A stretch of 64,000 nt of DNA from Solibacteraceae bacterium. GTDB lineage: Bacteria; Acidobacteriota; Terriglobia; Bryobacterales; Bryobacteraceae. Where the stretch lies: the NCBI GenBank assembly GCA_026984795.1, contig JALSRK010000045.1:1-64000 (forward strand). The letters are read 5' to 3'. Shown piece by piece: positions 18,622 through 45,761 of the stretch. Under the pieces are notes generated by a model. It worked only from the letters and a program-made list of their open reading frames with translations, was not told where the DNA came from and ran no database searches. Made by a program: the position numbers and the translations under genes. Position 1 is the stretch's first letter; every line of letters starts with the position of its first letter.

Positions 18622-18691
18622 AGGAATCTCCTCTTCGCAATCTGTCGAGTGTGCCTGTGTAGCTCCTTTGTTTTCTGTATGATAGACTGCG

Positions 18692-21393: not shown

Positions 21394-21395
21394 CC

Positions 21396-29647: not shown

Positions 29648-30730
29648 ATGAGAACGCCAATTGTTGCTGCCCTGCCGTTCGTTCTGTGCGCCACGGTTAC
29701 GGTTCTCTCCGGACCGGCGTTCAGCCAGCAACCGGTCACTCCCGGCGGCGCCGGTCGTGCGCTCCGCCAGGATGTTTTCCCGGACAGCCGCCGGGACGTT
29801 CCGAGCGCTCGGAGCGTCCGCGGGCCGATTCTCGGTTTCGCTGTCGATGATGCCGATGGGGTGCGGCTGATCCGCGGCATGCCGGGCGCTGCGTCGTTCA
29901 GCGCCCCGGTCGCCTCCGTCCGCGGCCTCGCCGCCTGGGCCGTTTCTTCTGAGCGAGGTTACATCCTGGGGGTCCCCGACCGCGCCGGGCGACTCGTGCT
30001 CTTGCGCAATCTGGACGCCCTGCCCGAGAGGGTGGAGCTCCCGGCCGATGCAGGCCCGGGGACGCTCATTGCCTTGAGCCCACTGGGTTCGGCCGCGGCG
30101 GTCTTCGACGCCGCTGGCAACCGCCTCATCGTTTTCGGCGGCCTGCCCGATCATCCATTTCCGCGCTGGCGCCTGGCCACGGACGCGCTGCCCGGCCCGA
30201 TTCAAGCTTTGGCGGTCGCCGATGAAGGCGGCGCCGTTCTGGCCGCCGCCGGAAAGGCCCTCGTCCGCCTTCGGCCCGCGGCGGCTTGGGAGTTCGTAGC
30301 GCCGCTGGCCGGTTCTGCGCGATTGGCGTTCGTCCCAGGCCGGGACGAGGCCGTCTATCTCGACGGAGTCGCCCTGGAGGCTGCTTTAGTTCGTTTCACC
30401 GCTTCGGGAGTTTCATTGGAGCCTCTGTTCGGCGGCAGGGATGGGTTGCGGGAGCCGGTGGCGGTCGCTGTCGGCTCTGATGCGCGCATCGTCTACGTTG
30501 CGGACGCCGCCTTGCCGGGGGTCTATGCCTTCGACCTCCGCTCACACATTCTCTCTACTGTCCGGAGCCCCCACGAACCGGTAACGCTGGCCCGTTTGCG
30601 CGGCGCCCGGCTGTTTCGATTGACAACCGGCGCTTCGGGGCCGGTCTATCTCTACGACGGGAGCCGAGGGGCGCCCCACGTGGCCTTCATTCCGGCGGCC
30701 GTCGACGCCATTGGCGGGGGTGAGAAATGA
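29648..30730 (+). CDS. Secreted propeller-like protein of unknown function
   Basis: A 360-residue protein with a signal peptide (MRTPIVAALPFVLCATVTVL...FSQ). GAGGAGG lies just before ATG 29648. Repeated segments such as GPILGFAVDDADGVRLIRG, GTLIALSPLGSAAAVFDAA and RIVYVADAALPGVYAFDL suggest beta-propeller blades, but no named family is evident. Its stop overlaps the next ATG (30727), so it is translationally coupled to the He_PIG protein. It probably acts with the proteins on either side. Confidence 0.65.
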   Translation: MRTPIVAALPFVLCATVTVLSGPAFSQQPVTPGGAGRALRQDVFPDSRRDVPSARSVRGPILGFAVDDADGVRLIRGMPGAASFSAPVASVRGLAAWAVSSERGYILGVPDRAGRLVLLRNLDALPERVELPADAGPGTLIALSPLGSAAAVFDAAGNRLIVFGGLPDHPFPRWRLATDALPGPIQALAVADEGGAVLAAAGKALVRLRPAAAWEFVAPLAGSARLAFVPGRDEAVYLDGVALEAALVRFTASGVSLEPLFGGRDGLREPVAVAVGSDARIVYVADAALPGVYAFDLRSHILSTVRSPHEPVTLARLRGARLFRLTTGASGPVYLYDGSRGAPHVAFIPAAVDAIGGGEK

Positions 30731-33202: not shown

Positions 33203-33742
33203 TCACCGGCTCTCGGCCGGCCGCGGCGTGCATCGCCGGCGGCGCAGCTTCCGGGCGGTCCACTCTTTATACGTTTGGATCTGTTTCGCGAGTTGCTTCC
33301 GGATCTCGCTGAATGTCGCTCCGGTGTCCACCCAGGGAGCTTGACACATCGACCGGGCCGTCGCCAGGCGCCACCGCGTGTCGGTGTCGAAAGCAGAAAG
33401 CCAGATGGCGATCCCGTTGAGCAGGTCGGTTTCGCTGCGGGCTTCGAGCAGTGTGCGGGTGGAGATGAAAATCCTTCCGTGCGACTCGAAAAACTCGGGG
33501 TCGTCGCTGAGGACCGGTACGATGATCAACGGTCTCCGGCTGCCGGCCAGCGGCGCCAGACGCCGTCCCAGCCGGGCCAGATAGCCGACGAGGTCCGCGT
33601 CGTGGTAAATGGGCAGCTCCTGGCCCTGGGCGTTTTCCACTCGCAGAAGCTGCCCCAGCTCTCCCCCGCACTGCATCTGAGCGGATGGCGCCACCGCCAG
33701 CCGCCCCGCAAACACGAGTGTAATGATTACCGGCGGGCTCAA
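33203..33742 (-). CDS. Secreted protein resembling the M48 peptidase N-terminal region but lacking HEXXH
   Basis: A 179-residue protein. TTG 33742 is used because GAGGG lies 5 nt upstream; a hydrophobic N-terminus follows. The segment DADLVGYLARLGRRLAPLAG, RRPLIIVPVLSDDPEFFESH and GRIFISTRTLLEARSETDLL parallels the part of M48 metalloproteases just before the zinc motif (index, prediction of 'ISTGLL..EAELAGVLAHE'). Where HEXXH should be, it reads NGIAIWLSAFDTD, so a zinc peptidase activity is not expected. TATAAT lies on the minus strand at 33769-33774, so it may have its own promoter. It closes the cytochrome cluster. Confidence 0.5.
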   Translation of the reverse strand: MSPPVIITLVFAGRLAVAPSAQMQCGGELGQLLRVENAQGQELPIYHDADLVGYLARLGRRLAPLAGSRRPLIIVPVLSDDPEFFESHGRIFISTRTLLEARSETDLLNGIAIWLSAFDTDTRWRLATARSMCQAPWVDTGATFSEIRKQLAKQIQTYKEWTARKLRRRRCTPRPAESR

Positions 33743-33768
33743 TTTTTCCCTCGTTTTCCCAATTAGGG

Positions 33769-33774
33769 ATTATA
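33769..33774 (-). promoter_or_regulatory. Consensus -10 hexamer upstream of the M48-like gene
   Basis: A perfect TATAAT on the minus strand, 26 nt before TTG 33742. No convincing -35 is seen at 16-18 nt. It suggests the last gene of the cluster can be transcribed on its own. Confidence 0.4.
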
Positions 33775-33886
33775 GGGTCTTGTGTCTTTTATCGGCCCCC
33801 GAAGATCTTTCTTGAGAGCTTGCTTGGAGGGTAGGGTCACTTACCGCACGATGTTAAGATCGATTTCCCGCCGGGGACGGTATCCG

Positions 33887-34945
33887 TCACCGGTCGCGGG
33901 CCGCCGCCTTTTCCGCCTCGAGGACGGCCGACTCGGGGAAGGTCGGGCGGAAGACCACCACCTTTCGGCTCAGCGAATCGACTACGTAGACCCGGCGATG
34001 GTGATCTACATATATGTCGTACGGCTTGTGGAACTGATCGATGCCCTCTCCGGACTGTCCGATGAGCGAGATCCTCCGGCCGTTGGAGGCGTAGACGAGC
34101 ACCGTCTCGTAATCCGGATCCCCTACGTACATCAGGCCGGTGCTACGCTCGATGCCGAACGCCGACGGCCGCCTTACCGGGCCCCAACGAAGGGCCCTCT
34201 TGCGCTTGCCCCTCGAATCGAATACTTCCACCTGCCGCGTGCCTGTATCCAACACGTAGACGTCCTTCAACCGCACGGCCAGCCGTACCGGATTTCGGAG
34301 TCCGCCCGCCTCGGACGAAGCCCCCAGCCGGCTCACCGTCTCACCCTCCTGATTGAAGACGAGGACATCGTGCCTCCCCGGGTCGGTCACGTAGACCCGG
34401 CGCAGATCGACTGAGACGGCGATATCGGACGGCGCCACCAGCTCGTGACGGTTCCGTTTCCCCAGCAGCCGGCGCAGGTACTCGCCCGTCCGGTCAAATA
34501 CGAAGATCTCTCTCAGACAAGCGTCCACGACGTAGACGCGGCCGTGCATATCCACGTCTACGCCCACTGGGCAGCGTAGCTCCACTTTGCCAGCTTTGCG
34601 AATTACCCTGTATTCGTTCGCCAGAACATGGAACATGTGCACCGCGCGGGCTCCCTCGTCGGCGATCCAGATCCGGCCCGTGTCATCGACGGCCACCGAC
34701 CGGGGGATGCGCACCGGCGAGAGATGTTCCGGGCCCCCAAACAGGAGGCGGCCGAGCCCCTTGGCGAACCGGCTCCGGGGGTTCACCCCGGCGTCGGTGC
34801 CGATCGTGAACAGGTGCTCGTAGGTGAGTTCTTGTCCGGCCGCGCCCAACGCCGAGACAAGCAAGCACGCCACTATGGCGCCGATCCGCCGCCGGCCGCC
34901 GCTTCGAGGAGAGGCCGACCGCACGATCGTTGTTGCCGTCCCCAT
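33887..34945 (-). CDS. Secreted six-bladed beta-propeller (NHL-repeat) protein C
   Basis: A 352-residue protein. A basic N-terminus and hydrophobic stretch (IGAIVACLLVSALGAAG) form the export signal. NHL-type blades are visible as repeated P-x-x-V-A-V-D-x-x-G-R-I/V-x-V-x-D: PRSVAVDDTGRIWIADEG, PVGVDVDMHGRVYVVDAC, YVDHHRRVYVVDSLSRKV. It is paralogous to the proteins at 36788-37831 and 40464-41585. It starts 10 nt after the stop of the 12-heme cytochrome. In Geobacter, propellers of this type are encoded next to filament-forming cytochromes; their role is not settled. Confidence 0.85.
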   Translation of the reverse strand: MGTATTIVRSASPRSGGRRRIGAIVACLLVSALGAAGQELTYEHLFTIGTDAGVNPRSRFAKGLGRLLFGGPEHLSPVRIPRSVAVDDTGRIWIADEGARAVHMFHVLANEYRVIRKAGKVELRCPVGVDVDMHGRVYVVDACLREIFVFDRTGEYLRRLLGKRNRHELVAPSDIAVSVDLRRVYVTDPGRHDVLVFNQEGETVSRLGASSEAGGLRNPVRLAVRLKDVYVLDTGTRQVEVFDSRGKRKRALRWGPVRRPSAFGIERSTGLMYVGDPDYETVLVYASNGRRISLIGQSGEGIDQFHKPYDIYVDHHRRVYVVDSLSRKVVVFRPTFPESAVLEAEKAAARDR

Positions 34946-34955
34946 TGCGTGCCCG

Positions 34956-36791
34956 CTAATGGTACATCTTCGGATCGTGGTTCTCTCCGTGACAGGTCAG
35001 GTAGCAGCGCCCTCGGAAGGTTCCAGTCCTCTCGTAGCGGAGACGTCCGGATTTCGACGGTCCGACGATCGCCAAATCGAAATTGATCAAGGCGTGGTTG
35101 TTCGTCACGCTCCCGCCGTTGATGCCGTGCGGATCGTGGCAGGTACTGCAGGAGGTGTCTTCGCCCTGGATGTGCTTTTTGTGCAGCTTGAAGCTCCTGT
35201 TCATCAGGATGCTATTGGCGATGTCGTGACACTTGTCACACAGTGCGTAGGTGCCGTTCAGGCCCGGCTGGTACTGCACGCCCGGGCTGTCGTCGCCCGG
35301 CTGGGCCGGCGGCACCTCCGCTTCGTACCGGCGCTCGAGGATGTGCGGCCAGTTCGAACCATGGACGCCCGAGGGCTGCGAGCCGCCGTCGTTCCGCGCC
35401 TGGCTGTTGTTGTGGCAGTCGCCGCAGTAGATGTATGTGCCCGCCGCCAGACTCCTGCCCGGAGCGCCTGTCAGCGTCAGCATGTTGGACCTCAGGCTCG
35501 GCACTTCGCTGTTGGATCGCTGCCGCGGCATGGTGACGTTGTGCCGCGCGACGGAGGAGTTGAACTCGGCGACCGTGTTGAATGGATCTCCCACCGTATC
35601 GTCAGTCACCCGCCATGGGGTTCGTCCGTAGACGGCATAGCCCGGCGTCGCCTGGGGCTTGCCGGCGCCGGCCCCGTGGCACTTGAAACAGACTTCGTGT
35701 TCCTTCGTCGCCGGCTTTTGAGCGGTGAGCCCCGAAAGGGAATCCACCCCGGTGGCCTCCGCCATCGCCGGCGGCAGCGACGGCGGAGTCGGCGAGAACC
35801 CAGGCGTAAGGGCCGCGTGAGGATTGTGGCAATCGGCGCACTCAGCGTGCCGGTTTCCGTTCAGCGGGTAGGCGTTCTCGCCCGGCTGATGCAGACCCGA
35901 CTTCGTCGTCGTGGGATGGGCGTACGGCAAAGTGAATGCGTTCATCACCGGCGGCAAGGCCGGCGACGTGCCCGTGCCGGCGTGGCATTCCGCACAGGTG
36001 TTTTCCTCGACGGCGCGCAGCAGAACCTGGTCCGTGGCCCCGTGGGGAGCATGGCAGGACAGGCAGGCGTTCGAGCCTACGTTGCCGTAATACTCGTTCC
36101 GCGTGTGCGTGGCCGCTTGATGGGCCGAACCCATCCACCCGGCGAGGGAGTTCGGCGCCGGTCGCGTAACGTCGTGGCAGGCCAGGCAGAGAGCGCCGCC
36201 CTCGTTGGACCGTACCAGGAACTTGCCCCGGGCCGGGTCCTTGTTCTGAATGTGCGGGTCGTGGCAGCTCAGGCATTCCACCCGGTCTTCGGGCAATGTC
36301 ACGTCTGGATCCGAGGAAACCGCCGGCGTCTGCGAGAGCCCCGGGTAAAGCTGGCCGTCGTCCACCGGCCGCAAGGCGATCGGGTGGTCGCCGCCGAGGT
36401 TCTGGCCCAGGACCGTTTCCGGCGACATGGAGCCCGACACCGGGATCGTTCCGCTGCCCACCGTGGTTCCCAGCGCCACGGTCCCGTCGTGGCAGCTCAG
36501 GCACAGCCGTGAAGACGTACCCGCCGGGTTGCCGGGAACGGCATCCAGCGTGGGGCTTTGATACGGCGTGTAGGGCCCCTCCGAGGACTGTTGATTCCAA
36601 AGGTAGGGGAAGCGCGTATCGGCGTTGTGGGGGATGTGGCAGAAGATGCAGGCGCGGGTGTCCCCTGAGGTCACTGGTCCTGGACCCCCCGCCGAAAGGT
36701 TATGGGGCGTGTTCAGTACCTCCGTGACGCGGTTCTGCCCCGGCGCCGCTGAGACAGCCAGGGCGGCGAGGGTCCACAGCGCCTTCCTCAT
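34956..36791 (-). CDS. Twelve-heme doubled-CXXCH cytochrome with N-terminal tetraheme (OmcE-like) module
   Basis: A 611-residue protein. ATG 36791 overlaps the upstream propeller stop (ATGA) and follows GAGGAG; the signal peptide is MRKALWTLAALAVSAAPGQ. Eleven CXXCH motifs (CIFCH, CLSCH, CLSCH, CLACH, CLSCH, CAECH, CADCH, CFKCH, CGDCH, CDKCH, CSTCH) and one CX3CH at the end (C596, C600, H601) are present. Residues about 48-206 (hemes at 48-52, 97-101, 173-177, 202-206) repeat the layout of the small tetraheme protein encoded at 39745, including YQSPTLDA, CLSCHDGTVA and GGDHPI. The remainder (about 210-611) is a separate octaheme region. Likely exported; no lipobox. Confidence 0.9.
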   Translation of the reverse strand: MRKALWTLAALAVSAAPGQNRVTEVLNTPHNLSAGGPGPVTSGDTRACIFCHIPHNADTRFPYLWNQQSSEGPYTPYQSPTLDAVPGNPAGTSSRLCLSCHDGTVALGTTVGSGTIPVSGSMSPETVLGQNLGGDHPIALRPVDDGQLYPGLSQTPAVSSDPDVTLPEDRVECLSCHDPHIQNKDPARGKFLVRSNEGGALCLACHDVTRPAPNSLAGWMGSAHQAATHTRNEYYGNVGSNACLSCHAPHGATDQVLLRAVEENTCAECHAGTGTSPALPPVMNAFTLPYAHPTTTKSGLHQPGENAYPLNGNRHAECADCHNPHAALTPGFSPTPPSLPPAMAEATGVDSLSGLTAQKPATKEHEVCFKCHGAGAGKPQATPGYAVYGRTPWRVTDDTVGDPFNTVAEFNSSVARHNVTMPRQRSNSEVPSLRSNMLTLTGAPGRSLAAGTYIYCGDCHNNSQARNDGGSQPSGVHGSNWPHILERRYEAEVPPAQPGDDSPGVQYQPGLNGTYALCDKCHDIANSILMNRSFKLHKKHIQGEDTSCSTCHDPHGINGGSVTNNHALINFDLAIVGPSKSGRLRYERTGTFRGRCYLTCHGENHDPKMYH

Positions 36792-37831
36792 CGTCTCCTC
36801 ACGAGCCGCGCCTGGCGCGCCGGGCGGGGACGGAAGACCTGCACTCTGGAATTGTAGGAGTCCGCGACCAGCAGCCGGCCCTCGGCATCGACGCAGATTC
36901 CCGCCGGCAGGAAGAACTCGCCCGGTTTCGCTCCCCCATGGCCGAAGGCCCAAACGAGCTCGCCAGCATAGGTGAACGCCTGGACGAGCTCGAACATGGC
37001 GTCCACCACGTAGACTAGTTTTCGCCCCTCGTCCACGGCGATTCCCTTGGGCCGGAACAGGCCGCCGGGCTCGTTCACCGGCTTGCCGAAGCTGGCAAGG
37101 AACGTGCCCTTCCGGTCGAAGACCTGAACCCGGAAGTTCATCGAATCCAGCACGAACACGCGGTCCGGCGCCAGGGCAATGTCGGTGGGGAAATTGAACT
37201 CGCCGGGGCCCTCGCCGCGCTTACCCCAGCGCTCCAGCGGACGTCCTTGGGCGTCCAGCACCTCCACGGCGTGGCGCAGCGTGTCGGTCAAATAGATCCG
37301 TCCGGACTCCCGGTCGATCGCGATGCCCGTGGGCCGCTTGTAGAGCCCCTCGCCGCCGGCGTCGCCGATGAAGCGGTCGAACTTCCCGTTGCGCCGGAAC
37401 ACGAAGATCTTACCCAGGTCCGAGTCGGTGACATAAATGTTCCCCCGGGTGTCCGTGTCGACGTCGATGGGCGAGCGGAAGCGCTGTTTCCGTGCGCCGT
37501 CCAAGCGTTTGTATTTCTTCCTGCGGGGGTCCAGGATGTGCACGGCCGGCCCGGCCCGGTCGGTGATCAGGATCCGTCCCTCCCGGTCCACCGCCACGGA
37601 GAACGGCCGCAGCAGCCCGCGGGACCTCTTTGACGGGCCGGCTACGATCCTCGCCAGTTTGGAGAAGAAGCCCCGCCGGATCTTCAGGTCACGGGGCGTC
37701 GAAATGCTCCGCAGGAAGGTGACGCTGTAGCCGGCGTCCGACTGCGGCCAGGCCAGCCGGACCGGCGCCTCGTCAGCCGCCCGGCCGGCGCCCGCAGCTA
37801 ACAGGATCGCGATCATTACCGGCCCGAACAT
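36788..37831 (-). CDS. Secreted six-bladed beta-propeller (NHL-repeat) protein B
   Basis: A 347-residue protein with a signal peptide (MIAILLAAGAGRA). After the shared N-terminal segment (YSVTFLRSISTPRDLKIRR) come six NHL-like blades: PFSVAVDREGRILITDRAG, PIDVDTDTRGNIYVTDSD, PTGIAIDRESGRIYLTDTL and so on to PAGICVDAEGRLLVADSYNSR, with the QVF ending typical of the last blade. ATG 37831 lies 6 nt after the barrel stop. It is translationally coupled to the 12-heme cytochrome. Paralogue of the propellers at 33887 and 40464. Confidence 0.87.
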   Translation of the reverse strand: MFGPVMIAILLAAGAGRAADEAPVRLAWPQSDAGYSVTFLRSISTPRDLKIRRGFFSKLARIVAGPSKRSRGLLRPFSVAVDREGRILITDRAGPAVHILDPRRKKYKRLDGARKQRFRSPIDVDTDTRGNIYVTDSDLGKIFVFRRNGKFDRFIGDAGGEGLYKRPTGIAIDRESGRIYLTDTLRHAVEVLDAQGRPLERWGKRGEGPGEFNFPTDIALAPDRVFVLDSMNFRVQVFDRKGTFLASFGKPVNEPGGLFRPKGIAVDEGRKLVYVVDAMFELVQAFTYAGELVWAFGHGGAKPGEFFLPAGICVDAEGRLLVADSYNSRVQVFRPRPARQARLVRRR

Positions 37832-37837
37832 ACAGTT

Positions 37838-39682
37838 TCAGAATACCCGGAAGTCACGCACCCACCGGAAGATGATCGCCTTGCGGAAGCTGCCCCCGCT
37901 GAACTGGTACTTGTACAGGATGTAGCCGGCCTCGAAGCGCAACTTCCGGAACCGCCACTCGAGCCACGCCTCCTGCTGCTCGAACCAGGAAGCCAGTTGC
38001 GGGCCCAACGTCTGCCGCCGGGCGCGGTACACCCCCCTGATGGTCAATTGCCGCGCCGGGTGTAGCGAAGCGGTGGCGGTCGTGTTGTCGGTCGAGGAGC
38101 TGTTGAGCAGCGCTCCTGAATCGAGGAAGCCGCTTTCCGACGTATCCGTGACGCCCGGGATCAGCAGAAAGAACGACTCACCCGCCAGGATCGTCCGGTT
38201 GTAATAGGCCGACATCCGGCGGCCGTCGAGGCGGCCCCCGTATTCGCGGCCGTCGAGGTTGGTATTGGTTTCGGCCCGGTTGAAGCGCGACCGGTAGAGC
38301 CCGGCGAAGACCTCCCCCGTCCACCGGCCGACGATCCGGCGGCTCACCGCCAGGCGGATCCGTTCGGAGTTGTCTTCGTAAGGCAGGGGCGTGTCGAACC
38401 GCTGCCGCGAGCGGATCAGGGTAAATGAACCCGTGGTGCGGACCGTCGAAGCCGTCCCCACCGACGCGCTGGTGTCCAATGCATGGCCGCGAGAATCGCC
38501 GGGACTCCCCCCGACGAGCCTCGTGGCGTTCACGAAGATCGAGTAAGTGGTCGCCAATGAGAGCCAGCGGTTCGACCACGAGTGGTTCACGCCCCCACCG
38601 GCCGTCTTTACGCTGCCGGTCAAGTTCAGATTCTGCCCTGGGGGCGCCGTGATCGAGGTGTATTCTCCCCGGCCGAACAGCCGGAGTGTGGGATGCAGGA
38701 GGTATTCGGCGGTCGCTTCGATCCGCCCGTTGGACTGTTCCGTCGGGGGCAGCAGCGCCGGAGTGAGTCCGTTTTCCGGATTGGCCGCATACTGCGAGAA
38801 GTTCCCCGTATATTGTCCCCGGATGGAAGCGCGGAGGCGAGCGCCGGGGGCGTACTGAAGCCCCGCGCTCACATTGCTGTAATCGAACTGATAGTCCCCG
38901 GTAGTGAAGACGCCCTGATTGGCCGTGCGGACCGCCGAGGCGCTGAAGAGCAAGCTCTCCCGGATCGGGCGCTGGGCGTAGACGCCGGCGGTGTCCAGCG
39001 TGTAATCGGAGCCGAACAACACGTCCGTACCCTCTTTTTGCGAACCGAGAATGGCCAGGCGCCGCTGGTCCTGCCGGTTGTAATAGCCGTTGAACAACCA
39101 CCGCTTCCACTTGTCGCGCCCGCTCAGCGAGAAGTTCTTTGAACCCACGTCCGAGCCGCGGGCGGCGATCGCCTCGGGCGTCGTGATGTTCGAGGTCAGG
39201 CTGTAGCTCACCTCGTATACGGCCCGGTTCGGCACGATGTGGCGCCAGTCGAGCTCGAGTAGCGAGTCCGAGTTGTTACTGAGAAACCGCGTGAAAGCGT
39301 TGTCGGCGGCCATCAGCAGCGGCCTCTCAATCCGCGAGTATCGGAAGCGGAACGGCCACCGCGACATGGGCAGGAACGACGTTTCGAAAGCCAGCCCGGA
39401 GCCCTCTGAGACTCCGGAAACGCCGCCCTGGAATCCACTGCTGAGCTGGGGCTGGACTCGATAAGTGATGAAGTACGGACTAAGGATGTAGCTGCGGTAG
39501 TCCAGCTTCAGGGTGGTGAACGGGTTCTGGATATGCTCGTCGAACCGGCCGCGGGCCTTGCTGTCCATCCAGCCGACGGCGAGAGAGCCGCTCAGGTGCT
39601 TCGCGCCTTCCCAGGGCGCCGGCTGTCCCACCAGCGGCCCCGCCAGAAAAACTATTGCCAGGCTGGACTCAAGAACCCGCAC
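37838..39682 (-). CDS. Outer-membrane beta-barrel protein of the cytochrome cluster
   Basis: A 614-residue protein. GTG 39682 is the best start: it precedes a hydrophobic signal peptide (VLESSLAIVFLAGPLVGQ), but no strong ribosome-binding site is present. The mature part alternates short polar/aromatic strands throughout (LDYRSYILSPYFITYRVQ, FRFRYSRIERPLLM, ASIRGQYTGNFSQYA) and ends in aromatic RWVRDFRVF, the usual outer-membrane insertion signal. Length and strand count fit a large barrel of more than 20 strands, comparable to the porins of porin-cytochrome conduits (MtrB/OmbB class); sequence identity to those cannot be judged here. It sits between the tetraheme gene and a propeller. Confidence 0.75.
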   Translation of the reverse strand: MRVLESSLAIVFLAGPLVGQPAPWEGAKHLSGSLAVGWMDSKARGRFDEHIQNPFTTLKLDYRSYILSPYFITYRVQPQLSSGFQGGVSGVSEGSGLAFETSFLPMSRWPFRFRYSRIERPLLMAADNAFTRFLSNNSDSLLELDWRHIVPNRAVYEVSYSLTSNITTPEAIAARGSDVGSKNFSLSGRDKWKRWLFNGYYNRQDQRRLAILGSQKEGTDVLFGSDYTLDTAGVYAQRPIRESLLFSASAVRTANQGVFTTGDYQFDYSNVSAGLQYAPGARLRASIRGQYTGNFSQYAANPENGLTPALLPPTEQSNGRIEATAEYLLHPTLRLFGRGEYTSITAPPGQNLNLTGSVKTAGGGVNHSWSNRWLSLATTYSIFVNATRLVGGSPGDSRGHALDTSASVGTASTVRTTGSFTLIRSRQRFDTPLPYEDNSERIRLAVSRRIVGRWTGEVFAGLYRSRFNRAETNTNLDGREYGGRLDGRRMSAYYNRTILAGESFFLLIPGVTDTSESGFLDSGALLNSSSTDNTTATASLHPARQLTIRGVYRARRQTLGPQLASWFEQQEAWLEWRFRKLRFEAGYILYKYQFSGGSFRKAIIFRWVRDFRVF

Positions 39683-39695
39683 GATCGACCGATAA

Positions 39696-39727
39696 GGCAG
39701 AAAGGAGGGGGGCGCGAAGCCCCCCGG
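39696..39727 (-). terminator. Terminator-like hairpin directly after the tetraheme gene
   Basis: On the minus strand GGGGGGC (39725-39719), loop TTCGC, GCCCCCC (39713-39707), followed by the T-rich TCCTTTCTG. It lies in the 62-nt gap between the tetraheme stop and the barrel start. It could stop most transcripts after the tetraheme gene, while some read through into the barrel and downstream genes. Confidence 0.6.
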
Positions 39728-39744
39728 AATTGCGTACAGCCCAG

Positions 39745-40377
39745 TTACAGGTGGCAGGCGCCACAAAGGCCCTGCTTGGAGTTGGAATTGGCCACGCGTA
39801 GAAACGGGCTGATCGAGTTGTCATGCACGTTGTGGCACGAAGCGCACTGCACGGTGTTGTTGCCGCCGTCGTCATACAGCACGACGCCGTTGGTGACGGC
39901 CGTCGTCGGCGATTCCAGACCGGCGTCCGCCGTGCTGTAGATCATGTTCACCGGATGGTCGTCGGTCAGCCCGGCGGAGTTCGTCGGGTTGCCGACGGCG
40001 GCGTCTTCCGTCGGTCCGATCACGGTCGGGGCCGTGACGCCGTCATGGCAGCTCATGCACAGCACTGAGTACAGCTTGGCCCCCGAAGGAGGATTGGTGT
40101 CGCTGTAGGTGGCGTCGCCAATCTCTTGCGGGGTCTCATCCATCGTCGGGCTGTCATAAGTGCCGAAGATTTGGGTGCTGAACTGCCGCGCCCACAGCAG
40201 GGTCTGTCCCCGGCCGGCATTGGCCTGCGCCGTGTGCGGCACATGGCATGAGGCGCATCCGTTGTGGCCGACATCATGGTCGGTGCCGAACACGGTCGTC
40301 TTGCTTTGTGCCAGCAAGCCCGTCGGAAAGACGACGGCGAGTGCGATCGCCACAAGGAACACGAGCGCGAATTTCAT
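39745..40377 (-). CDS. Tetraheme cytochrome, OmcE-like (candidate filament subunit)
   Basis: A 210-residue protein. The signal peptide is residues 1-23 (MKFALVFLVAIALAVVFPTG...LLA). Four CXXCH motifs lie at 41-45, 107-111, 178-182 and 205-209. Five further His (34, 38, 48, 141, 185) could give bis-His ligation of all four hemes. Family hallmarks are CASCHVPHTA, TYDSPTMDET, LCMSCHDGV, DDHPVN, CASCHNVHD and FLRVANSNS before the last heme. This matches the size and heme spacing of OmcE, which forms tetraheme extracellular filaments in Geobacter. AAAGGAGTG sits 9 nt before the ATG and a terminator-like hairpin follows, consistent with high expression. Assignment to filament formation is inference. 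Confidence 0.85.
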   Translation of the reverse strand: MKFALVFLVAIALAVVFPTGLLAQSKTTVFGTDHDVGHNGCASCHVPHTAQANAGRGQTLLWARQFSTQIFGTYDSPTMDETPQEIGDATYSDTNPPSGAKLYSVLCMSCHDGVTAPTVIGPTEDAAVGNPTNSAGLTDDHPVNMIYSTADAGLESPTTAVTNGVVLYDDGGNNTVQCASCHNVHDNSISPFLRVANSNSKQGLCGACHL

Positions 40378-40463
40378 GGTTTGTCACTCCTTTCTCTCGA
40401 ATCTTGTTGTAGCCTCAAAGGCTTGAACCTCGGCTGCATCTCAAACTCTCTCCGTCCGACGCA

Positions 40464-41585
40464 TCACCTCCTTCCGGGTGGCCGCAGGGTCGCCGCAGCG
40501 ACGTCGGGCTGCGAAATGTACTGGAAAACTTGGAGGCGGCCCGGGTGCTCCTCGAAGCCCTGCTCGACGACGTAGATCCGATCCTCTTCGTCGATCGTGA
40601 TCCCCGTCGGCAGCAGAAACTGCCCTGGCCGCACGCCGAAGCTCCCGACGAACAGTAACGGCTGCCCGTCGGGATCGAAAATCTGGAAGTTGTTGAACTC
40701 GGCGTCCAGCACATAGATGTGGCCTTCGCTGTCCACCGCAATGCCTTTGGGCCGCACGAAGTTGCCCGGCTGCACGCCCACTGTTCCGAAGGTCCGACGA
40801 AACTTGCCGTCCGGGCCGAAAACCTGGATCCGCCGGTTCCATGTGTCGGAAACGTAGAGATTCCCTTCTCGGTCCACCGCGACATTAGTGGGGCCGGCGA
40901 ACTCGCCGGGCTCGGCGCCGCCGGCTTCGCTTCTCCGGCCGATCTCCTGGACGAGTTGAAAGCTTTGCGTGTCGAAGACCAGGACCTGGTTCCGTTTCAC
41001 GTCGGCCACGTACAACCGGTTCCTGGCCCGGTCGATGGCCACGCCTCCCGGCCGCTCGAAGATCCCCGTCCCGAAGCCCGCCGCGGGACGCCCGTCGGGG
41101 GTGAAGACGACGATCCGGGCCGCGAAAGCGTCGGTCACGAACAGCCGTCCGAACTGGTCGAAGGCCAGGCTGGCCGGCAGAAACAGGGGGAACTGCGAAT
41201 TGCCGGTCCAGCGCCTGACTGTTTCGTTCGGCAGATCGAAGATCAGGATCGCCCGCTGGGCCATGTCGGCGACGAAGACGCGGCCGGCCCGGTCCACCGC
41301 TACCCCATAAGGTTTCACCAGGCGCAACAGCCGCCGCCGCGCGGACTTGCCCGTAATCCTCTCGACGAAGGTCGGCTTGTACTGCCCGGTGACGTCTTCC
41401 GAGGATCGGATCACCCGGATGAAGCGGATCCGCGGCTTCTCCGGCGGCCCCGGCCACACGAGGTCGAACTGCGGCGCGTAGGGAGCCCGCTTCTGTTTCT
41501 TCTTCTTCGCCGGCGCCGGCGCCACGAGCAGCAGCGCACAAACGATCCCGGCGATCCATTTGGTGCTTGCTGTCGCCTTCCTCAT
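40464..41585 (-). CDS. Secreted six-bladed beta-propeller (NHL-repeat) protein A
   Basis: A 373-residue protein. ATG 41585 is preferred to ATG 41591 because GAGGG then lies at a normal distance. A signal peptide (WIAGIVCALLLVAPAPA) precedes a basic stretch and the segment PEKPRIRFIRVIRSSEDVTG, typical of propellers found with cytochrome filaments. Six NHL blades follow: PYGVAVDRAGRVFVADMA, GGVAIDRARNRLYVADV, PTNVAVDREGNLYVSDTWN, PKGIAVDSEGHIYVLDAE and others. It lies just upstream of the tetraheme gene and 13-19 nt after the 12-heme cytochrome stop. Of the three propellers this one matches the NHL consensus best. Confidence 0.88.
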   Translation of the reverse strand: MRKATASTKWIAGIVCALLLVAPAPAKKKKQKRAPYAPQFDLVWPGPPEKPRIRFIRVIRSSEDVTGQYKPTFVERITGKSARRRLLRLVKPYGVAVDRAGRVFVADMAQRAILIFDLPNETVRRWTGNSQFPLFLPASLAFDQFGRLFVTDAFAARIVVFTPDGRPAAGFGTGIFERPGGVAIDRARNRLYVADVKRNQVLVFDTQSFQLVQEIGRRSEAGGAEPGEFAGPTNVAVDREGNLYVSDTWNRRIQVFGPDGKFRRTFGTVGVQPGNFVRPKGIAVDSEGHIYVLDAEFNNFQIFDPDGQPLLFVGSFGVRPGQFLLPTGITIDEEDRIYVVEQGFEEHPGRLQVFQYISQPDVAAATLRPPGRR

Positions 41586-41604
41586 CGCCATCCCTCTTTC
41601 CGCC

Positions 41605-42654
41605 TCAGTGGCACTTCAGACATAGGTCGCTCGTCTTCGGCGTGTCGGTGACCAGGAGATCGCGGCTTGCCTTCGTCGCGTGCGGCAAGTGGCACGTCAA
41701 ACAATCGATTTCCGGCTTGTTTCCTTCAGCCGGTTTCTTCACCGGGTGCATCGCCAAGGGGTGCCCTAGCGTGCCGTTCTCCCTGAGCAGCAGCATGCTC
41801 AGGTTCTCGAAGGCGCCCGGCCCCAGCGTGGCGCGGCCTCCGAAGAGCGGGAAAGGCTTGCTGGTATGGACGATCTTGGCGGCGTTGTCGCCGTGACACC
41901 CGAGGCACAGATCATTGCCGGCGGCGTAGAGCTGTTTGTCGTTGGCCTCCGCGTGGGGGTCGTGGCACAAGACGCAGGACTGCCGGACCGGCTCGTGCAC
42001 GTACTTCTTGCCGGCGACCACCTCGCCGTGGCAATCCAGGCAAAGCTCCCGGCCGTCCTTCACCAGGTAATAGGGTTGGTTGCTTCCGTGAGGATCGTGG
42101 CAGTCGGCGCACGCGTTGGCGTCGGCCGCCAGCAGGCTGTGCCGGTGGGCGGCGCTTTCAAAACGCTTCTTGAGTTCCTGGTGGCAGCCGAAACAGAGGG
42201 CCGCGGTCGTCTCGGCGGTGAGCTTGATCGCTCCGTCGCTCGGCGGCCGATGGCAGGCTTCGCACTGCCGGGCCCCGTACGGGCCGTGCTGCTCTTCGGG
42301 GATCAGTTTCGGCAGCGGCGCCGCGTGAGGATCATGGCAACTCGTGCACCGCGCCGTCTGAAACGGTTGGCCGTGGTGCGCCGTTACGATGGCCGAATCC
42401 TCGGCGTCGTGGCAGCCAAGGCACAAATCCGGCTCTTTGTCGTTCAAGTACGGTTTGGAGGCGGCCGTGCCTGGTTCGCGGTGATTCAGGTGGCAGGTGT
42501 CGCAGCCCAGTTCCACTGCCGGGTGGACCACCGGCTCTTCGAGCTTCTGTTTGATGCCGCTATGGCAGGTCACACACGCCGGCTCCCCCGCTTGCTGAGC
42601 ATAGGCCGCCGTCCAAAGCGCCACCGTGAGCCCACTAACCCCGATTCGCCACAT
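41605..42654 (-). CDS. Twelve-heme doubled-CXXCH cytochrome
   Basis: A 349-residue protein with a signal peptide (MWRIGVSGLTVALWTAAYAQ). Twelve CXXCH motifs are present: CVTCH, CDTCH, CLGCH, CTSCH, CEACH, CFGCH, CADCH, CLDCH, CVLCH, CLGCH, CLTCH and CLKCH, arranged as pairs with C-x-x-C-H-x-P-H segments (doubled CXXCH family). One heme per 29 residues is a dense heme wire. No lipobox, so probably periplasmic or secreted. It lies 19 nt after the regulator gene and 13 nt before propeller A. It would relay electrons to or through the barrel. Confidence 0.92.
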   Translation of the reverse strand: MWRIGVSGLTVALWTAAYAQQAGEPACVTCHSGIKQKLEEPVVHPAVELGCDTCHLNHREPGTAASKPYLNDKEPDLCLGCHDAEDSAIVTAHHGQPFQTARCTSCHDPHAAPLPKLIPEEQHGPYGARQCEACHRPPSDGAIKLTAETTAALCFGCHQELKKRFESAAHRHSLLAADANACADCHDPHGSNQPYYLVKDGRELCLDCHGEVVAGKKYVHEPVRQSCVLCHDPHAEANDKQLYAAGNDLCLGCHGDNAAKIVHTSKPFPLFGGRATLGPGAFENLSMLLLRENGTLGHPLAMHPVKKPAEGNKPEIDCLTCHLPHATKASRDLLVTDTPKTSDLCLKCH

Positions 42655-42673
42655 TGATCCCTACGGCCTCTCT

Positions 42674-43501
42674 TCATCCGAATCTCGGCTGGACGATCTG
42701 GAGCCGCCCCCTCTCCGTCTCCGCCTCAACCGGAACCCGGGCCACTATTTCGCGGATGTCCTCCGCGTCGAACTCTTCCCGCAGGATGCCCGAGAGGATG
42801 CGCGGGCGGTATTCCTCAGCGGTCTCGCGCCGTCCCGCCGCCAGGATCACTCTCATGCCGGGCGACCTCGTATCCCCCGCCAGGCAGTGAACCAGTTCGC
42901 GTGCCTCAGCCTCGTTCCCGGTTACCTGGACCACGACGAAAGCCGGGTGAAACTCGCCAACTTGCCGCGCCGCCTCGTAGCCATTCCTGGCGAAACGGAA
43001 CTCGAGATCGTCCGCATCCGCCCGCCACAGCCTTCGCATCTGCGATTCCTTCCGGGTCACCACCAACACCCGCGTCGGCAGCTTCATGATTCGCCGATAA
43101 TACGTACAGTCCTCACAGGAACCTTGGCAGAAAAGCCGCCGGTGGCCGAGCTCGCAGCCCAGCCGGAGGAGTTCGAAGCACCGGGTCGCTTGGACCCGGT
43201 AAACGGCGCAGCGCTTGCACTCATCGCGGGTCCGTCCGGCTTCCGCCAGGTACTCCCAGCAGCGCAACGGTCCACCGGCCGACGCTTCTTGCGCTTTGTG
43301 CCTGCCAGCGGCCACCGCAGCCCGCCCGCGCTCGTCCAGGAACCGGTCCAGCTCCGGCCGGGCGATGCGGTAGTGCCCGCCAGCCGTGCGTTCCGCCGGC
43401 AGCTTGCCACACTTGATCCACTTGAGCACCGTGTCGCGCTCCACATGGCAAATGCCCGCGGCCTGCCCCGTTGTCAACCAAGCTTTTGCCTTGGCGGCCA
43501 T
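42674..43501 (-). CDS. Cluster regulator: HTH + eight-cysteine module + degenerate receiver
   Basis: A 275-residue cytoplasmic protein. Residues about 7-58 are a MerR/excisionase-type HTH (LTTGQAAGICHVERDTVLKW, GGHYRIARPELDRFL). Residues 81-132 hold eight Cys (81, 95, 98, 108, 116, 125, 129, 132), including CKRC and CQGSCEDC, suited to an Fe-S cluster or zinc. Residues about 143-260 resemble a CheY receiver (PTRVLVVTRKESQMRRLW, FHPAFVVVQVTG), but neither the acidic pair nor the phospho-Asp is present. A redox- or metal-sensing regulator of the cytochrome cluster is the natural reading. It lies within the cluster on the same strand, with a 139-nt gap upstream that can hold a promoter. Confidence 0.78.
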   Translation of the reverse strand: MAAKAKAWLTTGQAAGICHVERDTVLKWIKCGKLPAERTAGGHYRIARPELDRFLDERGRAAVAAGRHKAQEASAGGPLRCWEYLAEAGRTRDECKRCAVYRVQATRCFELLRLGCELGHRRLFCQGSCEDCTYYRRIMKLPTRVLVVTRKESQMRRLWRADADDLEFRFARNGYEAARQVGEFHPAFVVVQVTGNEAEARELVHCLAGDTRSPGMRVILAAGRRETAEEYRPRILSGILREEFDAEDIREIVARVPVEAETERGRLQIVQPRFG

Positions 43502-43519
43502 CTCCAGGTTCCAGGGTTC

Positions 43520-43549
43520 ATGGTATCAAACTCTTAAAAGCAAGATCAA
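43520..43549 (-). promoter_or_regulatory. Possible internal promoter upstream of the cluster regulator
   Basis: On the minus strand TTGATC (43549-43544), an 18-nt spacer and TACCAT (43525-43520) lie in the 139-nt gap before ATG 43501. Match is moderate. The gap suggests the regulator, the 12-heme cytochrome, propeller A and the tetraheme gene can be transcribed separately from the first two cluster genes. Confidence 0.3.
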
Positions 43550-43640
43550 GGTTTGTGTAGTGGCTTAGTAGTTGTTCGTCTTCTCTGCGGTACTGGCCAG
43601 AAGGTACGCTCCGAACGCCGCATTTCCGCCACAGCTTTTG

Positions 43641-44534
43641 CTAATGCGCGCGCCTCTTCTGGGATTGCGGCTTTAGGAGTGGCTGGTGAGGGTCGTCGGG
43701 GGGTACCTTCCCGGCCCACTCTTCCGCCCGGCGGTTGTCCCCCTTCCGGCGCCATAACCAGCTCATTCCAGCGGCGATGTCGGCGGCTTTGGGATCCAAC
43801 TCGGCGGCCCGTTCGAAACACCGCTCAGCAGCCTCGACCTTTCCCCGTCTGGCTTCGAGATAGCCCAGCTCTACCCACGCCGGCCGGAAGTCCGGGGCTT
43901 CGCTGGTCAGGGACTCGAGGATCTCCTCGGCCTGGTCTGCCAGACCGAGGCGCAGGAGCTGCCGGGCCATCGCGAGGCGGCGTCGATATCTTCCCCCGCC
44001 GGCTGGTGCGCCCTTGACGGGCTGGGCTTGGCCGAAGATCTCGTCCAAATACCGCTGAACGCTTCCCAGCCCTTCCCGTCCGAACCCGGCGGTCCGGTTG
44101 AGCAGCTTTCCGTCCGCCGAGATGATCAGCAGGCTCGGGGTAGCGACGATTTGATAGCGCCCGAAATTGGTGCGGTCCGGATCCAGCAAGACGGGGATCG
44201 GCGATCCGCACGAGCTGGCGGCTTTGCGAAGTTGGTCTCGGTCGCTCGGGCCGGAGACCACCGTGAGCAGGGCGGCGCCCTTGTATCGGCGAACCAGTTC
44301 CGCGGCGCCGCACAAAGCTTCTTTCGACCGGCGGTACCTGGGGTGCCAGAACAGCACCAGCCGCACCTTCCCGGGAAAGTCCGCCAACGATTTCCTGGCC
44401 CCGCTCAGGTCGACCGCTTCGAGCGGCGGCGCCGGCCGCCCGATCGCGAGGCCCCGGGGATGCGGTGAAGCCGCCATTGCGCCGATCCCGGCTCCCATCA
44501 GCATCCCAGCCACGCAGCGACTAGTGACTCGCAT
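43641..44534 (-). CDS. Secreted thioredoxin-fold protein without CXXC, with TPR region
   Basis: A 297-residue protein. After a signal peptide (about residues 8-22) comes a TlpA/AhpC-like domain: IGRPAPPLEAVDLSGARKSL, then LVLFWHPRYRRSKEAL, then VATPSLLIISADGKLLNR with the cis-Pro. The redox CXXC expected after FW is absent (HPRYRRSK); single Cys lie elsewhere. Residues about 185-285 form two or three TPR-like helix pairs (RPAWVELGYLEARRGKVEAA). It overlaps the 13-heme gene by 14 nt, so it is coupled to it. A scaffold or heme/cytochrome assembly role is inferred. Confidence 0.75.
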   Translation of the reverse strand: MRVTSRCVAGMLMGAGIGAMAASPHPRGLAIGRPAPPLEAVDLSGARKSLADFPGKVRLVLFWHPRYRRSKEALCGAAELVRRYKGAALLTVVSGPSDRDQLRKAASSCGSPIPVLLDPDRTNFGRYQIVATPSLLIISADGKLLNRTAGFGREGLGSVQRYLDEIFGQAQPVKGAPAGGGRYRRRLAMARQLLRLGLADQAEEILESLTSEAPDFRPAWVELGYLEARRGKVEAAERCFERAAELDPKAADIAAGMSWLWRRKGDNRRAEEWAGKVPPDDPHQPLLKPQSQKRRAH

Positions 44535-45675
44535 CCGCTTCCGCCCGCGTATAGGATTCCGGCCGATGGCAGCCGGGCGCGCAAGAACCGCCGTTGCTGG
44601 TCTCTTTGTAATTGATCGGCAATTGCCAGTTGCCGAACGGCACCGAATCGCGGATGTGGTTTGGATGCCGGCTGGCGTGGGTTTCGTGGCAAGCCCGGCA
44701 TGTCCGGCCCTTCCGCGCTTTGTGGACGTGAACGTAGTGCAGGTTTCGGGCGCCGTTGCGGAAGTCGGTCACCGTCGTGGTCTCGGCCTCCGTTGCCAGC
44801 GCCGAGTCGTGACAAGAGAAACACAATGCGAAGTTCTCTTCCCGGTAGGGGGCATAGAAGGTTGCCGGGTACTCGGCGAACAGCAGCCGGAAGAAATTCG
44901 AACCGTGCGGCTGATGGCAGCCCGAGCAATCTCTTTCCCGGATCGGCCCATGGTGGTCCGGGTTGTCGGCCAGGAGCTTCTTCATGTTCGTCAGCCCCTT
45001 GACCCGCGAGCCGTCGTGGCAGGACAGGCACACTGCCAGTCCATCGGCTTTGAGCAGCGGGCGGTGCTCGGCCGCGTGCGGCCGGTGGCAGTTCAGGCAA
45101 GCCGGCGGTTCGGTGACCGGGGGATGCTTCACTTTGGCCGACCGCGCGGTCTCGAGAATGTCGCCGTGGCACTGGCCGCAGAGCTCCGCGACCGGCGATT
45201 TCAGTTGTGCGGTCTGCTCCGACGCATGCGGATCGTGGCAGGTTGTGCATCCACTCTCCAGCGCCTGGTGCCGGAATGGCTCGGCCTCCAGCCGCTCTTG
45301 CATCTCCTGGTGGCAGATGAAACAGAGTTGATTCCCCTCGATGCGGACCAGATGATCGTGGTCCGAAGAGTGGGGATCGTGGCAAGCCACGCAAGCGCCC
45401 ACGGCCACCGGTCCATGCATGTGTTTGCCCTCGAAGGTCTCGTGGCACATGCCGCAGAGTTCGGCCGGCGGGGCTGTCAGGGTTGCCTCGCCCCCCTTTT
45501 CCGGGACATCGTGGCAACTCGTGCAGTCGGCGGCAGCCGCGGCGTGCTCCACGCGGGAGCCCATCAGGTCGGAGTGGCAGGAAGTGCAGGCGGCGCCGCC
45601 GGTCTCCGGATGCCGAGCCCACAGGCCGGCGGCGGCCAGAGTCCACATGGCAGCGAGCTTGGTGATCCGGGTCAC
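44521..45675 (-). CDS. Thirteen-heme doubled-CXXCH cytochrome with terminal CX3CH
   Basis: A 384-residue protein. GTG 45675 is the start, with GAGG 6 nt upstream; signal peptide MTRITKLAAMWTLAAAGLWA. Twelve CXXCH motifs (CTSCH, CTSCH, CGMCH, CVACH, CFICH, CTTCH, CGQCH, CLNCH, CLSCH, CSGCH, CFSCH, CRACH) are followed by a last heme site of the form CX3CH (C365, C369, H370: CAPGCH). Pairs with the C-x-x-C-H-x-P-H form mark the doubled-CXXCH family. It is the first gene of the cluster, behind a palindromic promoter region. Likely periplasmic or cell-surface electron carrier. Confidence 0.9.
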   Translation of the reverse strand: MTRITKLAAMWTLAAAGLWARHPETGGAACTSCHSDLMGSRVEHAAAAADCTSCHDVPEKGGEATLTAPPAELCGMCHETFEGKHMHGPVAVGACVACHDPHSSDHDHLVRIEGNQLCFICHQEMQERLEAEPFRHQALESGCTTCHDPHASEQTAQLKSPVAELCGQCHGDILETARSAKVKHPPVTEPPACLNCHRPHAAEHRPLLKADGLAVCLSCHDGSRVKGLTNMKKLLADNPDHHGPIRERDCSGCHQPHGSNFFRLLFAEYPATFYAPYREENFALCFSCHDSALATEAETTTVTDFRNGARNLHYVHVHKARKGRTCRACHETHASRHPNHIRDSVPFGNWQLPINYKETSNGGSCAPGCHRPESYTRAEADASH

Positions 45676-45726
45676 GAGAAACCTCGGTGCGGCTCGAGGT
45701 GAGTTCGACGCTCAACCAAGACCGAG

Positions 45727-45761
45727 ACTATAAGTTAACTACTTGCGGACCTTAAGGTCAA
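45727..45761 (-). promoter_or_regulatory. Palindromic promoter region of the cytochrome cluster
   Basis: On the minus strand TTGACC (45761-45756), a 17-nt spacer and TTAACT (45738-45733), with TATAGT just after (45732-45727). A perfect 12-bp palindrome GACCTTAAGGTC (45748-45759) overlaps the -35, and AGTTAACT (45733-45740), an 8-bp palindrome, overlaps the -10. This is a typical place for a repressor or activator. The leader to GTG 45675 would be about 45 nt. Confidence 0.5.

What the first reader, a model, noticed from the sequence alone, without database searches (positions are those of the whole stretch)
33203..45761. Candidate extracellular electron conduit: cytochromes, propellers, barrel and regulator in one 12-kb cluster
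Seen: eleven same-strand genes with short gaps or overlaps encode four exported multiheme cytochromes (13, 12, 4 and 12 heme motifs, 41 in total), three paralogous NHL propellers, one outer-membrane barrel, a thioredoxin-fold/TPR protein, a Cys-rich regulator and a small secreted protein. Known: porin-cytochrome conduits and filament cytochromes move electrons out of Geobacter and Shewanella. Inferred: this is a distinct acidobacterial version. The combination with three propellers, a filament-like tetraheme and an embedded Cys-sensor regulator is, to my knowledge, not a described system.
Basis: partly seen in the sequence, partly recalled or inferred. Interest (0 to 1): 0.9.

Follow-up and report, generated by a model that had tools for sequence, protein, structure and literature searches.

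The report
Acidobacterial Uet-type cytochrome nanowire cluster
This stretch of an acidobacterium's genome encodes a kit for wiring electrons out of (or into) the cell through a large predicted outer-membrane pore and heme proteins closely related to a known microbial nanowire; the core kit is already known from other bacteria and turns up in many phyla, but this version is differently equipped.

Summary
In detail: eleven minus-strand genes encode four multiheme cytochromes with 13+12+4+12 = 41 heme motifs (39 CXXCH, 2 CX3CH), three NHL propellers, a predicted 28-strand barrel, a thioredoxin-fold/TPR protein, an HTH/8-Cys regulator and a small protein. "Not a described system" fails: NHL / tetraheme / barrel / NHL / 11-heme is the composition published as Uet (undecaheme electron transfer). 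The 11-heme gene occurs near a tetraheme gene in 14 phyla, and acidobacterial 11-heme proteins are not one clade. The tetraheme is an OmcE-type nanowire subunit (family profile vs structure 7TFS E=1.4e-53, all eight His aligned). The 11(+1)-heme protein begins with an OmcE-like domain (7.8e-51) fused to a 7(+1)-heme domain that is a separate gene in 12 other loci. I propose that it caps or anchors the filament; papers I could read do not say this. Local additions: two MtrA-like 12/13-heme cytochromes, a third NHL, the Trx-TPR protein, the regulator; Uet's isomerase and trihemes are missing from the cluster. Filament formation, export and electron direction are inferred. Verdict: new variant of a known kind.

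The parts
44521..45675 (-). MHC1: 13-heme cytochrome (12 CXXCH + 1 CX3CH), paired-CXXCH / MtrA-like, signal-like N-terminus
   Evidence: PF09699 4.2e-60; chain A of Mtr complex 6R2Q, 2e-12
43641..44534 (-). AhpC/TSA (thioredoxin-fold) + TPR protein, no CXXC motif; homolog in the relative locus G476
   Evidence: (L180)
42674..43501 (-). Regulator: MerR/excisionase-type HTH, eight-Cys segment (81-132), C-terminal receiver-like region (by eye)
41605..42654 (-). MHC2: 12-heme cytochrome, MtrA/DmsE-like (below the DmsE cut-off)
   Evidence: TIGR03508 134.5 bits, cut-off 192.2; 6R2Q chain A 7.6e-19
40464..41591 (-). NHL1 beta-propeller
39745..40377 (-). Tetraheme cytochrome, OmcE-type nanowire subunit (UetA-like); 4 CXXCH + 4 further conserved His
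37838..39682 (-). Outer-membrane beta-barrel (UetC-like), 28 predicted strands; start 39682 (GTG) is inferred, ORF open to 39766
36788..37831 (-). NHL2 beta-propeller
34956..36791 (-). MHC3: UetJ-like 11 CXXCH + 1 CX3CH cytochrome; residues 1-207 OmcE-like domain, the rest a 7(+1)-heme domain
33887..34945 (-). NHL3 beta-propeller (extra; same-type gene in four same-family loci)
33203..33742 (-). Small, probably secreted protein, no family match; weak homolog (5e-5) upstream of the relative locus L066
18277..22631 (.). Possibly related front end: c7 triheme cytochrome (-), response regulator (-), octaheme + 4Fe-4S + NrfD quinol module (+); linkage to the cluster is inference only

Best explanation
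A Uet-type extracellular electron conduit with an OmcE-family cytochrome filament, in an acidobacterial (Terriglobia-type, inferred) variant. Most likely working: periplasmic cytochromes (perhaps the c7 triheme encoded about 15 kb beyond the end of the cluster) pass electrons to the MtrA-like MHC1/MHC2; these reach into the 28-strand barrel; outside, the tetraheme polymerises into a heme chain in which a His of one subunit ligates a heme of the next, as in OmcE; MHC3, whose first 207 residues are an OmcE-like unit fused to a 7(+1)-heme domain, sits at one end of the filament as its base adaptor or its mineral-touching cap. The propellers and the Trx-TPR protein assist assembly or surface arrangement; the HTH/8-Cys regulator tunes expression to redox state. 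Shown by computation: gene content, homology to OmcE, domain fusion/fission, conserved neighbourhood, barrel prediction. Inferred: polymerisation, export route, electron direction, end-capping role, roles of propellers and regulator.
For: Tetraheme profile vs PDB: OmcE 7TFS 1.4e-53, 9YUQ (16 chains) 2.5e-44, next OmcS 9e-7; all eight heme-ligand-type His align with OmcE, including the one before heme 1. MHC3 profile vs 7TFS 7.8e-51 over positions 8-210; final CX3CH in 67 of 69 MHC3 homologs and in 13 of 13 7-heme relatives, one of them (L065_5) doubtful. Among the 120 loci, fused MHC3 in 68, unfused 7-heme near a tetraheme in 12, never both; 65 of the 68 also hold a separate tetraheme. Neighbourhood: of the 33 named loci of 18 kb or more found through a stand-alone tetraheme, 24 have an NHL, 25 the 11-heme gene, 14 the barrel family, 10 all three, 2 none. 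Barrel family, recruited by sequence within the fetched loci: 50 of 50 members within two genes of an NHL or multiheme gene (other genes of that size 153 of 216). In nine of nine loci tested, the 335-393-aa gene beside the barrel is a SurA/PpiC isomerase, as in Uet. MHC2/MHC1 match chain A of the Mtr complex; the barrel model aligns over 483 residues with chain B of that complex (Z 15.9, 6.8 A).
Against: No wet evidence. The window cluster lacks two published Uet parts (isomerase, trihemes). The Mtr-barrel match is tied in Z with unrelated barrels, so the fold is generic. Of the 61 named loci found through a stand-alone tetraheme, 13 show none of NHL, 11-heme or barrel family, many on short contigs. 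Deleting DFE_0448-0450, 0461-0462 or 0464-0465 of D. ferrophilus, cytochromes in NHL-bearing clusters, did not impair Fe(III) oxide reduction (PMC9769857, passage), and the physiological role of OmcS filaments is disputed (PMC11077965, abstract start in a listing). Distribution is patchy: a tetraheme-type match (stand-alone or in the 11-heme protein) in 43 of 297 phylum genomes, none in the two other same-family genomes of that sample. The AlphaFold model of MHC3 is poor in the OmcE-like half and had no fold match below E 0.001.
Confidence: 0.7

Rival explanations
1. Porin-cytochrome conduit without a filament: barrel plus MtrA-like MHC1/MHC2 with MHC3 as outside terminal reductase; the tetraheme is a monomeric surface or periplasmic shuttle.
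For: MHC1/MHC2 match Mtr-complex chain A; the second part of MHC3 gives weak matches to other multiheme cytochromes (6QVM 4e-11, 6I5B 1e-7, 5ZE8 6e-7).
Against: The tetraheme keeps the full OmcE ligand set including the N-terminal His and C-terminal CXXCH; 7TFS is the OmcE filament (PMC12954529, passages) and 9YUQ lists 16 chains.
Confidence: 0.2
2. The barrel is the secretion channel of the filament subunit (as proposed for OscEFG of the osc cluster), not a sheath around a transmembrane heme wire; electrons cross by another conduit such as the decaheme/GSU2204-like locus on contig C76.
For: osc genes are described as folding, secretion and morphology factors of OmcS nanowires (PMC13194489 passage); a second conduit-like locus exists in this genome; barrel and isomerase sit together beside the tetraheme in other loci.
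Against: All 50 barrel-family members also lie within two genes of an NHL or multiheme gene, and the window has two Mtr-chain-A-like cytochromes in the same cluster.
Confidence: 0.3
3. Electron uptake: the system oxidises extracellular donors (Fe(II), minerals) and feeds oxygen respiration, as proposed for Uet in cathode-oxidising Tenderiales and iron-oxidising Gallionella.
For: Published Uet hosts are electron-uptake organisms (PMC10734462, passages); this genome encodes a heme-copper oxidase.
Against: Relatives sit in Geothrix fermentans (L160), a metal reducer by recall. The c7/NrfD module could serve either direction; sequence does not decide.
Confidence: 0.3

Closest known systems
Uet (undecaheme electron transfer) system, Ca. 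Tenderia electrophaga / Gallionella (Eddie 2022, not held; described in PMC10734462, passages)
   Same: Undecaheme UetJ (listed there with 11 and 12 motifs), extracellular tetraheme UetA, barrel UetC, two NHL proteins UetHI
   Different: Here no isomerase (UetB) and no trihemes (UetDEG) in the cluster; extra 12- and 13-heme MtrA-like cytochromes, third NHL, Trx-TPR protein, HTH/8-Cys regulator. No Tenderia sequence could be compared.
OmcE tetraheme cytochrome filament, Geobacter sulfurreducens (PDB 7TFS)
   Same: Full-length homology, four CXXCH, four further His, C-terminal CXXCH
   Different: Distant in sequence (single-sequence E 1.8e-12); filament formation not shown
osc (omcS companion) cluster, Geobacter (Shen 2025, not held; passage in PMC13194489)
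   Same: Nanowire cytochrome with companions for folding, secretion and morphology (that OscD is propeller-like and OscH an isomerase is recalled)
   Different: OmcS-type cytochromes (hexaheme, PMC12977616 passage) and a 26-heme companion (GSU2495); neither is in the window cluster
MtrCAB / porin-cytochrome conduits
   Same: Large barrel with Mtr-chain-A-like cytochromes
   Different: MHC1/MHC2 have 12-13 hemes and fall below the DmsE family cut-off; barrel without Pfam or NCBIfam match
D. ferrophilus DFE_0448-0451 and DFE_0461-0465 clusters (PMC9769857, passages)
   Same: Multiheme cytochromes with NHL propellers
   Different: No porin-cytochrome conduit recognised there; direct sequence comparison not made

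Membership tests
OmcE-type nanowire subunit | Full-length sequence homology to OmcE | tested here: met
   family profile E=1.4e-53, single sequence 1.8e-12
OmcE-type nanowire subunit | Four CXXCH plus four distal-type His, one N-terminal to heme 1 | tested here: met
   in A1 the His at 48 is at 90% or more, the other seven invariant
OmcE-type nanowire subunit | Polymerises extracellularly with inter-subunit His ligation | not testable with these tools
   needs cryo-EM
Uet system | Undecaheme UetJ-type cytochrome | tested here: met
   MHC3 11 CXXCH + CX3CH; same family in gammaproteobacterial loci L094, L096, L101 with NHL-4h-3h-3h-~660 aa-NHL-11h order. Judged by composition; not compared with Tenderia UetJ itself
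Uet system | Extracellular tetraheme, barrel and two NHL proteins beside it | tested here: met
   (location outside the cell not tested)
Uet system | Peptidyl-prolyl isomerase UetB in the cluster | tested here: not met
   no isomerase among the eleven; an FKBP at 15764-16222; SurA-type genes elsewhere in the genome
Uet system | Triheme cytochromes UetDEG in the cluster | tested here: not met
   no triheme in 33203-45675; a c7 triheme lies at 18277-18621
MtrA/DmsE decaheme | Score over NCBIfam TIGR03508 cut-off (192.2) | tested here: not met
   MHC2 134.5, MHC1 112.5 bits
MtrB/PioB barrel | Fold match well above other barrels | tested here: inconclusive
   6R2Q_B Z 15.9 with an alignment of 483 residues, but tied with unrelated barrels
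osc cluster | OmcS-type hexaheme and 26-heme companion | tested here: not met
   no hexaheme or 26-heme gene in the cluster

The most novel reading that the evidence does not exclude
The undecaheme (UetJ-type) protein is the end-piece of an OmcE-type nanowire: an OmcE-like filament unit permanently fused to a 7(+1)-heme domain with a conserved terminal CX3CH, so that it can join the filament at only one end and wire it to the conduit or to the mineral. This would unite the 'Uet porin-cytochrome' and 'OmcE nanowire' systems as one machine, whose 11-heme and tetraheme genes I find together in 14 phyla, and give the nanowire field its missing anchor or tip protein.
Probability: 0.45. Interest if true: 0.75.

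Novelty: new variant of a known kind. Interest (0 to 1): 0.55.

Why it matters
[quoted passage not shown] A protein that carries a filament-like unit fused to another multiheme domain, conserved near the filament subunit and often near barrel and propellers across phyla, makes that question directly testable. The window also adds an acidobacterial variant with a regulator, a third propeller and two MtrA-like cytochromes that the Uet set described in PMC10734462 does not list.

Tried and rejected
Acidobacterial-only system: rejected. Barrel by single sequence: found in 2 of 297 phylum and 13 of 200 order genomes, the window's own genome included in both; only iteration over the fetched loci linked it across phyla, and that iteration was stopped, not converged. 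A first barrel set chosen by position contained three genes that I judged wrong (L066_12, L069_3, L074_7) and dropped. A first co-occurrence count over all 80 named loci (51 NHL, 48 11-heme, 26 barrel, 18 all three, 17 none) was partly circular, because in 11 loci the search had matched the OmcE-like domain of the 11-heme gene itself; the report quotes the recount on the 61 loci matched in a stand-alone tetraheme, leaving out those 11 and 8 others (7 matched in 5- or 6-heme ORFs, 1 in none). Fold search of MHC3: nothing below E 0.001; this does not test the badly modelled OmcE-like half. A second regulator copy on contig C31 with a SurA-type gene about 3 kb away looked like a remote isomerase locus, but the neighbourhood shows no multiheme gene. 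Regulator family and multiheme genes: 5 of 17 loci, counting the window's own, with about 1.5 kb flanks: suggestive only. Classical thiol-disulfide role of the Trx protein: no CXXC. Structural families not appearing in the fold lists are not excluded. The careful tree was not finished; the quick tree is quoted, without L119_7 and L124_5. A3 also left out MHC3-like proteins of 690 aa or more and those above E 1e-60. Gene calls outside the window come from my own ORF caller. At least two contigs occur twice among the loci (L049/L089, L080/L160), so counts over L048-L167 are slightly inflated.
Full report
OBSERVATION. The window lies in a 5.23-Mb, 96.8% complete genome (contig C45). Its phylum is Acidobacteriota: two genomes labelled 'same phylum' (G207, G142) hold contigs of the same lengths (55892 and 52773) as contigs named Acidobacteriota bacterium M_MaxBin.030 and Geothrix fermentans DSM 14018. 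Eleven minus-strand ORFs were confirmed. Order in transcription: MHC1 (13 hemes), Trx-TPR, regulator, MHC2 (12), NHL1, tetraheme, barrel, NHL2, MHC3 (12), NHL3, small protein. The total of 41 motifs is right if two CX3CH are counted. Upstream lies a divergent GH127 gene (46038-48017), downstream a convergent Ig-like protein gene ending at 33111.

IDENTITY OF THE TETRAHEME. A single-sequence search finds 9YUQ (4.6e-14) and OmcE (7TFS, 1.8e-12). A profile of 26 acidobacterial tetrahemes finds 7TFS at 1.4e-53 over nearly the full length, 9YUQ at 2.5e-44, then OmcS at 9e-7. The printed alignment puts all eight His, including the one before heme 1, opposite OmcE His. In OmcE and OmcS one heme is ligated by a His of the neighbouring subunit (PMC12954529, PMC9473688, passages read); which His that is in OmcE I did not establish.

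IDENTITY OF MHC3. Residues 1-207 match 9YUQ (1.4e-20) and 12-206 match OmcE (4.8e-18); a 47-row profile matches OmcE at 7.8e-51 over positions 8-210. Beyond that lies a second domain of seven CXXCH and a last CX3CH. The CX3CH is the last motif in 67 of 69 homologs; of the two exceptions one shows a longer spacing in its tail and one ORF ends before that point. In 12 loci (11 distinct contigs) no fused form is found in the stretch held, but a 7-heme protein with CX3CH lies within two genes of a tetraheme; in five of them (L054, L089, L090, L092, L153) a second tetraheme directly precedes it. In the other seven the only close tetraheme is the filament-type one. Such fusion/fission is a usual sign of physical partnership; I infer that MHC3 is an end-piece of the filament. 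Matches of its second part to 6QVM, 6I5B and 5ZE8 (4e-11, 1e-7, 6e-7) are weak, since CXXCH spacing alone can raise such scores.

NEIGHBOURHOOD. A tetraheme-type match, stand-alone or in the 11-heme protein, is in 43 of 297 sampled phylum genomes. Forty regions were fetched: 34 have an NHL, 25 at least two, 20 the 11-heme gene, 24 the barrel family, 15 all three (they were picked for tetraheme or barrel hits, so the barrel figure is partly by construction). Of 68 loci with the fused 11-heme gene 65 also hold a separate tetraheme. In the window's own genome six NHL ORFs lie outside the cluster, about 0.02 per 20 kb; NHL density in the other genomes was not measured. The order in gammaproteobacterial loci L094, L096, L101 is NHL, 4-heme, 3-heme, 3-heme, ~660 aa, NHL, 11-heme; no isomerase was looked for there. 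Nine of nine genes of 335-393 aa tested beside the barrel in other loci are SurA/PpiC isomerases; the close relatives L066 to L073 show no gene of that size between tetraheme and barrel. A histidine kinase (one confirmed) followed by a response-regulator-like ORF sits upstream of the tetraheme in several other loci, where the window has its HTH/8-Cys regulator. The relative locus G476 (L066) keeps small protein, regulator, a shortened or broken MHC1, Trx-TPR, MHC2 and the whole core, in a different order at the start.

BARREL. Iterated profiles over the fetched loci link the window barrel to barrels in loci of other phyla without using position, apart from a 400-800 aa size filter and at most one heme motif; 50 of 50 members are within two genes of an NHL or multiheme gene, against 153 of 216 other genes of that size, many of which may be unrecognised barrels. 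AlphaFold2 on 19 rows: 28 strands, mean pLDDT 76.7, pTM 0.68. Foldseek and VIA-align match large outer-membrane barrels in general; chain B of the Mtr complex (MtrB, recalled) is third by Foldseek E-value and aligns over 483 residues (6.8 A, Z 15.9) but is tied in Z with others.

MHC1 AND MHC2. Both match chain A of the Mtr complex (2e-12, 7.6e-19), whose PDB molecule name reads 'Cystathionine beta-synthase'; that chain A is MtrA is recalled. Both fall below the DmsE cut-off. In relatives the place before NHL1 holds cytochromes of 7 to 21 hemes, some similar to MHC1/MHC2, while 23-heme ones of close relatives are another, more distant type.

KNOWN SYSTEMS. PMC10734462 (passages) describes Uet: undecaheme UetJ, tetraheme UetA, trihemes UetDEG, isomerase UetB, NHL UetHI, barrel UetC, after Eddie 2022, which is not held and was not read. 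The window core fits, but lacks UetB and UetDEG in the cluster. PMC5539420 (passages) describes a propeller/16-heme/26-heme/isomerase operon, PMC13194489 (passage) the osc operon, PMC9769857 (passages) NHL-bearing cytochrome clusters, PMC12016550 (passage) an OmcE homolog with two NHL proteins, PMC13264449 (passages) porin-cytochrome loci centred on undecaheme or larger cytochromes in karst metagenomes, with Acidobacteriota among the carriers of porin-cytochrome loci. Baquero 2023 and Shen 2025 are not held and may already describe parts of this. Searches listed no paper that, in what I read, identifies an OmcE-like domain in the undecaheme protein; most listed papers were seen only in the listing, so this is not proof of absence.

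EVOLUTION. In a quick tree of 68 MHC3 proteins (14 phyla by label) the window groups with nine other acidobacterial sequences (SH-aLRT 100), nearest L066 of the same family (61% identity); the 23 acidobacterial rows need five label changes, at least four by starred branches, and no shuffle of 500 was as low. One row of that clade is named Terriglobia (L141) and the others are same family or class, hence 'Terriglobia-type'. So there is a distinct acidobacterial clade inside a widespread family.

FUNCTION. The most likely reading and its rivals are given in their sections. Direction of electron flow is undecided: the genome has a heme-copper oxidase and a c7/octaheme/Fe-S/NrfD module at 18-23 kb of the window. 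The D. ferrophilus deletions and the dispute over OmcS filaments count against a simple claim that such clusters are essential for mineral respiration.

Noticed in passing
window 18277-22631: c7-type triheme cytochrome (over the TIGR04257 cut-off), a response regulator, and an octaheme / 4Fe-4S / NrfD gene set, a likely quinol:cytochrome c module in the same window.
   Followed up: partly
L200:9197-13779 (own genome, contig C76): A second conduit-like locus: decaheme over the DmsE cut-off (TIGR03508), a 652-aa protein with a weak GSU2204-family match and a 7-heme protein.
   Followed up: partly
L202:7687-10482 (own genome, contig C52): 932-aa ORF with 19 CXXCH and a cytochrome b561 match just under the cut-off, a possible membrane-bound multiheme quinol enzyme.
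   Followed up: no
window 42674-43501; L168-L181, L193-L195: Regulator family (HTH, Cys-rich segment, receiver-like region): 17 strong places in 200 genomes of the order, window included; five lie beside multiheme genes, a second copy is in the own genome.
   Followed up: partly
L048, L067, L068, L070-L072, L086, L087: A 23-heme cytochrome, divergently transcribed from NHL1 in seven of these eight loci, stands near the core where the window has MHC1/MHC2.
   Followed up: no
L053, L060, L063, L064, L081: 42-43-heme cytochromes of about 1010-1070 aa within the same 20-kb stretch as Uet-like genes in one acidobacterial family (f23).
   Followed up: no
window 30727-33111: Large protein with repeated putative Ig (He_PIG) domains, convergent with the cluster.
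   Followed up: no
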